Assembly: GCF_029223255.1 (NCBI RefSeq)
Contig: NZ_JARHUC010000002.1
Coordinates: 248,001 to 312,000, forward strand
DNA length: 64,000 bases
Direction of reading: 5' to 3'
Source of the DNA: Albimonas marina
GTDB taxonomy: Bacteria > Pseudomonadota > Alphaproteobacteria > Rhodobacterales > Rhodobacteraceae
Below are positions 9,541 through 21,840 of the stretch, piece after piece (positions within the stretch are counted from its first letter, which is position 1; the number at the start of each line of letters is the position of its first letter). The notes below the pieces were generated by a model. The model searched no databases and was not told the origin of the DNA. It saw nothing but the letters and a program-made list of their open reading frames with translations. A program made the position numbers and the translations under genes.

Positions 9541-9585
9541 AGGGCGCCTCGGCGCGACGCCGGCGGCCCTCGCGGAGCGCCCGTT
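9541..9585 (+). repeat. Fragment of the long-inverted-repeat element family
   Basis: About 45 bases here match the 5' flank of the full elements at 10794 and 21620: a CGGCGCGACGCC block, then GGCCCTCGC, then GAGCGCC and GTTC. The palindromic part is absent or decayed, leaving only a short GTTCGCGGGCGAG remnant. It lies 30 bp after the stop of a plus-strand gene, the same position and orientation as the complete copies. Confidence 0.55.
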
Positions 9586-9665
9586 CGCGGGCGAGGCAGG
9601 CGCGTCCTCTCCGCTGGACGCCGGGAGCGCCGGCCCCCAAACTCCCCCGAAACCCGGAGCCCCGC

Positions 9666-10788: not shown

Positions 10789-10793
10789 GCTCC

Positions 10794-11010
10794 AGGCGCC
10801 CCGGCGCGACGCCTGCGGCCCTCGCAAAGCGCCTGTTCTCCGGAGCCGTCTCTCGCGGATGCCGGAAAGAGCGACTCGGTCCCCGGGGTCAAGGATCGCG
10901 TAGCGACCGGCGAAGCCGGCTTGTCCTTGACCCCGGGGACCGAGTCGCTCAGGCATCCATCAGCGAGAGACGGGTCCGGAGAACAGGCGCGGGCCCTGTT
11001 CTTTGGTGAG
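10794..11010 (+). repeat. Long-inverted-repeat element, full copy 1
   Basis: Bases 10829-10844 (GCGCCTGTTCTCCGGA) are the exact reverse complement of 10975-10990. Inside them GTCTCTCGC (10848-10856) pairs with 10963-10971, and a 26-bp arm at 10870-10895 pairs perfectly with 10924-10949. The apex contains the mini-hairpin CCGGCGAAGCCGG. The palindrome is preceded by a CGGCGCGACGCC block and followed by CTGTTCTTTGGTGAG, both shared with the copy at 21620. It directly follows recO and lies about 200 bp before the next gene. It could act as an RNA hairpin at the 3' end of recO or be a non-autonomous mobile repeat. Confidence 0.8.
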
Positions 11011-11212
11011 TCAGGAGCCCGCCGGAGGCTCCCCCCTCCGAAATCGAGGCACGCCCCCCGCACCAGGCCCAAGCCCGCCCGCAGGGCGCCTCCGTCCCTC
11101 GCGTCCCGCCCCTCTCCGGCCGCTCGCGGCCTGCAAAGCGTCGTCCCGGCTCTCGCAACCCGTCGCGCTCCGGTCTAGGTGTGTCGCGCAGCCCCCCGAC
11201 CGTGGAGCCGAC

Positions 11213-21609: not shown

Positions 21610-21619
21610 CGCCCGCCCC

Positions 21620-21840
21620 ACGCGCTCCGGCGCGACGCCCGCAGGCCCGCGGAGCGCCTGTTCTTCGGAGCCGTCCGTCGCTGATGCCGATCAGAGCGAG
21701 TCGGCGGGAGGGGTCAGGGATCGCGAAGCGACCCCGCCCTTGGGCGGGGCTTGTCCTTGACCCCTCCCGGCGACTCGCTCAGGCATCTTCAGCGACGGAC
21801 GGATCCGAAGGACAGGCGCGGCCTCTGTTCTTTGGTGAGC
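21620..21840 (+). repeat. Long-inverted-repeat element, full copy 2
   Basis: The same element as at 10794. The outer arm GCGCCTGTTCTTCGGA (21654-21669) pairs with bases ending at 21819, GTCCGTCGCTGATGCC pairs with GGCATC and CAGCGACGGAC on the far side, and an inner 26-bp arm AGCGAGTCGGCGGGAGG... pairs with its partner ending at 21779. The apex holds ACCCCGCCC-TTG-GGCGGGGC. The 5' block CGGCGCGACGCC and the 3' block CTGTTCTTTGGTGAG are conserved. It lies just after the pth stop and about 160 bp before ychF. Confidence 0.8.

What the first reader, a model, noticed from the sequence alone, without database searches (positions are those of the whole stretch)
10794..11010. Long-inverted-repeat element with compensatory changes between its two copies (also 21620-21840)
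Both copies fold into about 160-bp imperfect palindromes with the same flanks (CGGCGCGACGCC before, CTGTTCTTTGGTGAG after). In the inner 26-bp arm seven positions differ between the copies and six of them are matched by a complementary change in the other arm. Other arm positions also covary (GTCTCTCGC versus GTCCGTCGC). Both sit just after the stop of a plus-strand gene (recO, pth), in the same orientation. This suggests a folded RNA or a palindrome-dependent mobile repeat. Palindrome self-correction can also produce paired changes, so RNA function is not proven.
Basis: seen in the sequence. Interest (0 to 1): 0.75.

Follow-up and report, generated by a model that had tools for sequence, protein, structure and literature searches.

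The report
Dispersed hairpin repeats behind bacterial genes
The two palindromes are members of an undescribed family of about 200-base hairpin repeats, present in roughly 130 copies in this bacterium and in smaller numbers in relatives, whose two arms change together and whose one strand is clearly the one that must fold.

Summary
The copies at 10829-10990 and 21654-21819 belong to a repeat family with 132 marker hits in this genome against 4 in the control, and 150 against 2 in its sister species. Covariance models find relatives with the same plan in 19 of 198 family and 23 of 196 order genomes, this genome included. Rfam has no match in the window or in 15 relative loci. A mid-stem box is 8 bp in all 186 parsed copies, in 58 sequences, and nearly always paired. 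Wobbles favour one strand, 251 G.T against 9 A.C. That strand folds better in 90 of 96, 80 of 89 and 45 of 46 copies, whichever way neighbouring genes point. Most tested sites are shared with the sister species, yet the sequence there was replaced: 1 of 42 boxes is the same. An arm segment X recurs as X, X' and X and varies jointly. Best reading: a non-autonomous hairpin repeat of the ERIC/CIR kind, spread and homogenised through a folded single strand, sitting at gene 3' ends. Whether that strand is RNA or DNA is open.

The parts
10791..11031 (+). Copy 1 of the repeat, whole (profile HMM match), between recO and the next plus-strand ORF
   Evidence: E 3.1e-76; alignment
10829..10856 (+). Copy 1, 5' outer arm L, holding X (CCTGTTCT, 10832-10839)
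10869..10878 (+). Copy 1, 5' arm GAGCGACTCG with a GANTC site at 10873
10879..10886 (+). Copy 1, 8-bp hypervariable box, 5' side
10887..10932 (+). Copy 1, apical module GGTCAAGGA - two mini-hairpins - CTTG - TCCTTGACC
10933..10940 (+). Copy 1, box, 3' side
10963..10990 (+). Copy 1, 3' outer arm R' with X' (AGAACAGG, 10980-10987)
10995..11010 (+). Copy 1, L2: X again (10995-11002) followed by TT and GGTGAG (11005-11010); GANTC at 11008
21617..21840 (+). Copy 2, whole (profile HMM match), between pth and ychF
   Evidence: E 1.5e-58
21654..21681 (+). Copy 2, 5' outer arm L
21704..21711 (+). Copy 2, 8-bp box, 5' side
21763..21770 (+). Copy 2, 8-bp box, 3' side (one G.G mismatch)
21792..21819 (+). 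Copy 2, 3' outer arm R'
21825..21839 (+). Copy 2, L2 (CTGTTCTTTGGTGAG)
9543..9600 (+). Decayed remnant: left flank plus a degenerate GCGCC-GTTC / GGCGAGGCAGG right flank, no stem. The sister species carries a full copy at the same place.
   Evidence: weak HMM match at 9543-9586, E 0.0021

Best explanation
A family of non-autonomous, dispersed hairpin repeats of about 200 bp. Shown: they lie mostly at the 3' ends of genes; they occur in ~130 copies in this genome and fewer in other genera; their arms covary; and they are constrained on one strand only. Inferred: the unit that is selected is the folded plus strand. Copies spread, and within this genus overwrite each other, through a single-stranded intermediate (ssDNA or RNA) or by gene conversion seeded at the palindrome, so that well-folded copies propagate. 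Once in place the hairpin would also be read into transcripts and could end or protect them. In this genus each copy also carries two or three CcrM-type GANTC sites, which may make it a methylation-linked DNA site as well.
For: Copy number and distribution. Paired hypervariable box: 186 of 186 parsed copies have 8 bp on the 5' side; 1415 WC + 35 G.T of 1480 cells in 185 copies. Strand-specific wobble: 251 G.T to 9 A.C; 57 to 9 without the three most shared columns, and 13 to 0 in antisense tandem copies; plus strand more stable in 90/96, 80/89 and 45/46. Shared positions but replaced sequence: 43 of 45 bracketed copies have a copy at the same site in the sister species (a biased sample); box similarity of 41 ortholog pairs .451 against .472 shuffled. 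Boxes are shared within genomes (.083.060) more than across (.015). In another genus, copies at unrelated sites of two species are 93% identical (L388 and L393; flanks .42 and .45), as copying or conversion would give. Gene 3' ends: divergent context in 8 of 91 (copies not inside a called ORF and with both neighbours) and 3 of 46.
Against: No mobilising enzyme was found: no Y1 transposase in G000, G001, G002 or G022; other transposase families were not searched. No clean empty site was seen; the two stemless sites compared between species look like stem loss between the X direct repeats, and a third region was uninformative. No autonomous relative turned up, though none was searched for beyond Y1. 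In five same-site pairs of low-copy genera the changes show no wobble bias (4 G.T, 6 A.C, 17 broken, 4 one-sided WC, 1 two-sided WC). Two-sided changes track divergence rather than clearly copying: 6 and 8 in two pairs that share one flank only, 6 and 0 in two pairs at different sites, so in-place compensation is not excluded. Orientation against GC skew is only weakly biased once the elements are masked (p .02 to .05), and adjacent copies are not co-oriented (25 same, 20 different; 23 and 26).
Confidence: 0.5

Rival explanations
1. A cis-acting RNA at transcript 3' ends: a processing, stability or termination element. X (L) pairs with R', or R' pairs with L2, as alternative hairpins. Where L abuts the stop codon, a terminating ribosome could cover L and release R' to L2.
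For: Strand-specific wobble. Two-sided changes in 18 of 62 predicted pairs (60 of the copies). X in L equals X in L2 in the same copy: 7.5 of 8 against 4.97 shuffled, n = 46; 7.6 against 5.46 with one copy per genome, n = 15. A purine-rich internal loop near the tip recurs in other genera (read by eye). Element start within -3 to +12 nt of the same-strand stop codon in 14 of 32 cases, among them genes with prfC and gyrA domains.
Against: Tandem contexts are balanced: 29 sense to 25 antisense in G000, 7 to 11 in other genera. Strand bias is equal in antisense copies. No conserved sequence lies upstream of X in the 46 copies of other genera, so no promoter of its own is visible. There is no run of T behind the hairpin.
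Confidence: 0.3
2. A DNA-level site. The palindrome (cruciform or protein site, with GANTC) is what matters, and paired changes come from palindrome self-correction and gene conversion alone.
For: GANTC at 12.0 and 11.5 per kb in cores against 1.12 and 1.16 per kb in the tiles; the N of GANTC is the variable base of an otherwise nearly fixed 10-mer. A RAMA-domain protein is present in G000 and G001; of 14 control genomes only Caulobacter rings. One copy has its inner stem inverted (L028).
Against: Self-correction is strand-symmetric and cannot give 251 to 9. Asymmetric wobbles and mismatches persist as shared polymorphisms in both species. GANTC is not conserved in other genera: 0 sites in 29 of 46 copies.
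Confidence: 0.15

Closest known systems
ERIC / IRU / RU-1 (enterobacteria)
   Same: Dispersed intergenic imperfect palindrome of about 100-200 bp folding as one long stem-loop; reported to act in mRNA through RNA fold (PMC2229807 and PMC2267715, passages seen).
   Different: ERIC is 127 bp with TA termini and target-site duplications (PMC2229807, passages). Here there are no TA ends, the host is an alphaproteobacterium, and there is a variable paired box and an X-X'-X plan. Sequence was not compared with ERIC directly.
CIR, CcrM-associated intergenic repeats (Caulobacter, Brucella)
   Same: Alphaproteobacterial intergenic repeat carrying conserved GANTC sites (PMC2229807 section 7, read).
   Different: CIR is about 110 bp with two arms joined by a linker and GANTC at a terminal loop. 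Here there is one long stem with GANTC paired inside it, and GANTC is not conserved outside this genus. CIR sequences were not compared directly.
REP / BIME with RAYT (Y1) transposases
   Same: More than 100 copies, extragenic, hairpin thought to act as a single strand.
   Different: REPs have a GT(A/G)G head and an imperfect palindrome, and RAYTs meeting that paper's criteria were found in gammaproteobacteria only (PMC2817692, passages seen). No Y1 protein in the genomes with most copies.
Correia / NEMIS (Neisseria)
   Same: Miniature element of similar size (107 and 155 bp species) whose RNA stem is proposed to be cut by RNase III (PMC2229807, passages).
   Different: TA ends, 24-bp terminal repeats and target duplication are reported there; not seen here.

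Membership tests
REP/RAYT | Y1 (PF01797) transposase in the genome | tested here: not met
   0 in G000, G001, G002, G022 and G004; 1 of 9 genomes searched has one (G009, which had no match to the element)
REP/RAYT | GT(A/G)G head before the palindrome | tested here: not met
   the left boundary is X, which varies; no such head
ERIC/MITE | TA termini and target-site duplication | tested here: not met
   left end is variable X, right end GGTGAGYYCNGAAGC. Conserved sequence continues beyond the second X, so the X direct repeats are not an outer duplication
ERIC/MITE | Dispersed, intergenic, folds into one long stem-loop | tested here: met
   (10 of 102 copies fall inside a roughly called ORF)
ERIC/MITE | Mobility shown by clean empty sites | tested here: inconclusive
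   two stemless sites look like deletions, one region uninformative; 2 of 30 marker loci are solo sites, 1 partial
CIR | Conserved GANTC within the repeat | tested here: inconclusive
   met in this genus, not in other genera
CIR | Two-armed fold with GANTC at a loop | tested here: not met
   one stem, GANTC paired in the stem
Known RNA family in Rfam 15 | Score at or above gathering threshold | tested here: not met
   only a tRNA in the window; nothing in 15 relative loci
Intrinsic terminator | Hairpin followed by a run of T | tested here: not met
   by reading: the stem is followed by X and GGTGAG, no T run
ERIC-like RNA function | Transcribed and processed in mRNA | not testable with these tools
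   no transcript data

The most novel reading that the evidence does not exclude
A genome-wide set of about 130 three-segment switches (X, X', X) at gene ends. X' can close the long hairpin or a short 3' hairpin, and X is rewritten jointly in all three places, so the element carries a self-templated, copy-specific sequence. When L abuts the stop codon, ribosome release could decide which hairpin forms.
Probability: 0.12. Interest if true: 0.85.

Novelty: new variant of a known kind. Interest (0 to 1): 0.56.

Why it matters
Bacterial palindromic repeats are usually read either as DNA sites or as RNA signals, and paired changes alone cannot tell which. Here nearly 200 copies in two species, plus relatives in many genera, give a strand-resolved test: the fold of one strand is under selection, regardless of neighbouring gene direction. 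The family also offers a bacterial case of concerted evolution of a short dispersed repeat, with shared sites and replaced sequence, and a candidate three-segment structure that can be tested at the bench.

Tried and rejected
Recent mobility by a REP-type Y1 transposase: rejected, no PF01797 in G000, G001, G002, G022. Known Rfam RNA: rejected (sub-threshold matches are mostly microRNA precursor models, as expected for long hairpins). Phage or plasmid origin: no phage match; the 5 plasmid matches cover only the apical module, and four copies from other genera gave no plasmid match. The X direct repeats as a target-site duplication: rejected because conserved sequence continues beyond the second X. 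Replication-linked orientation: a first result was partly circular because elements were counted in the skew; after masking it is weak.

Mended on rereading: I had taken the low-copy genera to show that two-sided changes go with copying rather than with time. A further check does not bear that out clearly, so I dropped that argument, lowered the first explanation from 0.55 to 0.50 and raised the cis RNA from 0.27 to 0.30.

Counting caveats: the stem parser tolerates few substitutions and dropped 7 of 193 copies at the first step and one more at the second. The GATGCC segment was counted only where it matched closely (169 of 185). Cells are not independent, as copies are related. The gene callers are rough. 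The 43 of 45 figure comes from stretches of the sister genome that were themselves chosen to contain copies. One search pairs use the minimum-energy fold of one member. The first anchoring of X misplaced some copies and dropped three; it was redone with all 46.

Searches for a description in print: (listings). None of the listed papers was seen to describe this repeat; the library is open-access only, and I opened passages or one section of three papers.

Full report
WHAT IS THERE. Two imperfect palindromes lie 40-45 nt behind recO and pth. Stems are 10829-10990 and 21654-21819.

HOW MANY. In the window's genome (5.85 Mb, 22 contigs) BLAST scored 40 of 238 candidates. A 14-base marker with up to 2 mismatches hits 132 times against 4 for the reversed control. 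The sister species G001 has 150 against 2. I hold 106 unique copies of G000 (102 full length) and 92 of G001 (91 full). A third congener, G002, showed only the apical module in two places and 2 marker hits against 1 control. Of 41 genomes searched with the DNA, the own one included, 4 matched, in two genera.

ANATOMY. From the alignments: a 28-nt outer arm containing X; a small internal loop; GAGCGA-N-TCG; an 8-bp box; GGTCAAGGA; a tip of two mini-hairpins (the second variable in length and sequence); then the mirror image; then X again followed by GGTGAG. RNAalifold on 60 of the copies predicts 62 pairs, 18 with two-sided changes. The box is 8 bp on the 5' side in 186 of 186 parsed copies (7 of 193 not parsed), although the parser allowed 6-16; it has 58 sequences, and 127 of 185 are perfectly paired.

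WHICH STRAND. Over 185 copies the stem holds 10634 Watson-Crick, 251 G.T, 9 A.C and 110 other cells, read on the plus strand. By column, G.T exceeds A.C in 22 and the reverse holds in 5 (p .0015). Leaving out the three most shared columns gives 57 to 9, and 13 to 0 in copies whose neighbours would transcribe the minus strand. Folding both strands, the plus strand is more stable in 90 of 96 (G000), 80 of 89 (G001, 7 opposite, 2 ties) and 45 of 46 copies from other genera. Mutation bias tied to replication or to gene transcription should be largely averaged out by mixed orientation. Palindrome self-correction is symmetric. So a single strand, RNA or DNA, is what must fold.

SHARED SITES, REPLACED SEQUENCE. 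Of 102 full G000 copies, 45 have both flanks in the fetched G001 stretches, and 43 of these 45 have a copy at the same site. The stretches were chosen for holding copies, so this is an upper estimate; allowing for coverage, about 70-85% of sites are shared (my estimate). Flanks are mostly 80-94% identical, yet the elements at shared sites are scarcely more alike than random pairs: 69% against 67% overall, box .451 against .472 shuffled, tip .809 against .801, with a slight trace in the outer arm.947 against .935, p .013 (41 pairs). One box of 42 is the same. Box kinds number 28 and 37 with 7 shared, and two copies share a box far more often within a genome (.083.060) than across (.015). This is concerted evolution or repeated replacement.

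IN OTHER GENERA. In five pairs of species with the same site, elements change about as slowly as their flanks: 325 pairs unchanged, 17 broken, 6 A.C, 4 G.T, 4 other one-sided, 1 two-sided. In two more diverged pairs that share only one flank, 6 and 8 two-sided Watson-Crick changes are seen, with many broken pairs as well; of two pairs at unrelated sites one has 6 and the other 0. The last pair (L388, L393) is 93% identical at unrelated sites of two species, which argues for copying or conversion there too. So two-sided changes build up with divergence, and I cannot say from these few pairs whether they arise in place or with copying. The numbers are small.

RELATIVES. A model of the G000/G001 copies (R1) finds matches in 8 of 149 family genomes. 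A second model (R2), from eight copies of four other genera, finds 19 of 198 (E 1e-4) and 23 of 196 in the order, 14 of 88 genera (E 1e-6); the own genome is among them, the samples overlap, and some of the weaker matches could be chance. In six genomes looked at more closely there are 3 to 16 places (my count of non-overlapping places); several others show one (12 candidates scored each), and G450 filled all 12. In relatives X differs (for example CTTCGTTC, GCTGCTTC, TTTCCGTTT), but it is the same before GGAGCC and before GGTGAG of one copy: 7.5 of 8 against 4.97 shuffled, maximum 5.54 of 500 shuffles, n = 46; 7.6 against 5.46, maximum 6.4, one per genome, n = 15. Pairing of X and of the second X with R' is also better than every shuffle for n = 46. 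With one copy per genome it does not pass the best shuffle.

PLACE. In G000 contexts are 29 tandem sense, 29 convergent, 25 tandem antisense, 8 divergent, with 10 of 102 inside a called ORF and 1 lacking a neighbour; in other genera 7, 25, 11, 3 of 46. So gene 3' ends are preferred, with no orientation preference in tandem pairs. In other genera the element starts within -3 to +12 nt of a same-strand stop codon in 14 of 32 cases. Genes next to copies, named from Pfam domains, include prfC, gyrA, a clpA-like gene, purK, a class I tRNA synthetase, an isocitrate/isopropylmalate-type dehydrogenase and trpE. Divergent and antisense cases are real for at least two copies checked by Pfam (L372, L368).

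STEM LOSS. At two places one species has the full copy and the other only the outer ends joined through X, as expected from deletion between the X direct repeats. One of these is in the window near 9543-9600. Two of 30 marker loci are such solo sites and one is partial.

GANTC. In this genus cores hold 12.0 and 11.5 GANTC per kb against 1.1 and 1.2 in the stretches, one in each arm in nearly all copies (94 and 95 of 96; 83 and 84 of 89), and the N is the variable base. The right end adds a third in 74 of 102 and 69 of 91. A RAMA-domain protein, which among 14 control genomes rings only in Caulobacter, is present; that it is CcrM is inference. Other genera lack this pattern: 29 of 46 copies have no GANTC.

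COMPARISON. It works most like ERIC and carries CcrM sites like CIR, but defining features of each are not met (see membership table). It is a new family as far as Rfam and the paper searches listed under Tried and rejected show.

CERTAINTY. Shown: copy family, covariation, box, strand bias, shared sites with replaced sequence, joint variation of X. Inferred: single-stranded intermediate, conversion, any effect on transcripts or methylation.

Noticed in passing
L063, L065 (G002); L273 (G000:C6:64056): A shorter hairpin family shares the apical module GGTCAAGGCTCGCGnAGCGACC but has different arms; in L063 and L065 an AAGGCCCGCCTCCGGGCC hairpin follows.
   Followed up: partly
L147, L148, L149, L150: Part or all of the same apical sequence occurs on small MobV plasmids assigned to Pseudomonas and Shigella and on Agrobacterium and Novosphingobium plasmids, outside any known copy of the repeat. 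In a draw of 240 class genomes the apical pattern hit 139 times in G000 and once, with a mismatch, in each of two others.
   Followed up: partly
L028 (G000:C16:333974-334137): One copy has its inner stem inverted relative to its outer arms and flanks, as from recombination between the two arms.
   Followed up: partly
L386, L387, L388, L392, L393 (G445, G526): Copies share a replaced 5' end (CAGCATCTGCG-AGTCGGG) so that L no longer matches R', while R':L2 is mostly kept.
   Followed up: no
L320 (G272), L321 (G405); also matches in G468 and G476: A variant of about 227-229 bp; in L320 and L321 the tip is longer and different. Relation to the family rests on the model and shared ends.
   Followed up: no
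L032, L038: Solo sites with both outer ends and no hairpin.
   Followed up: partly
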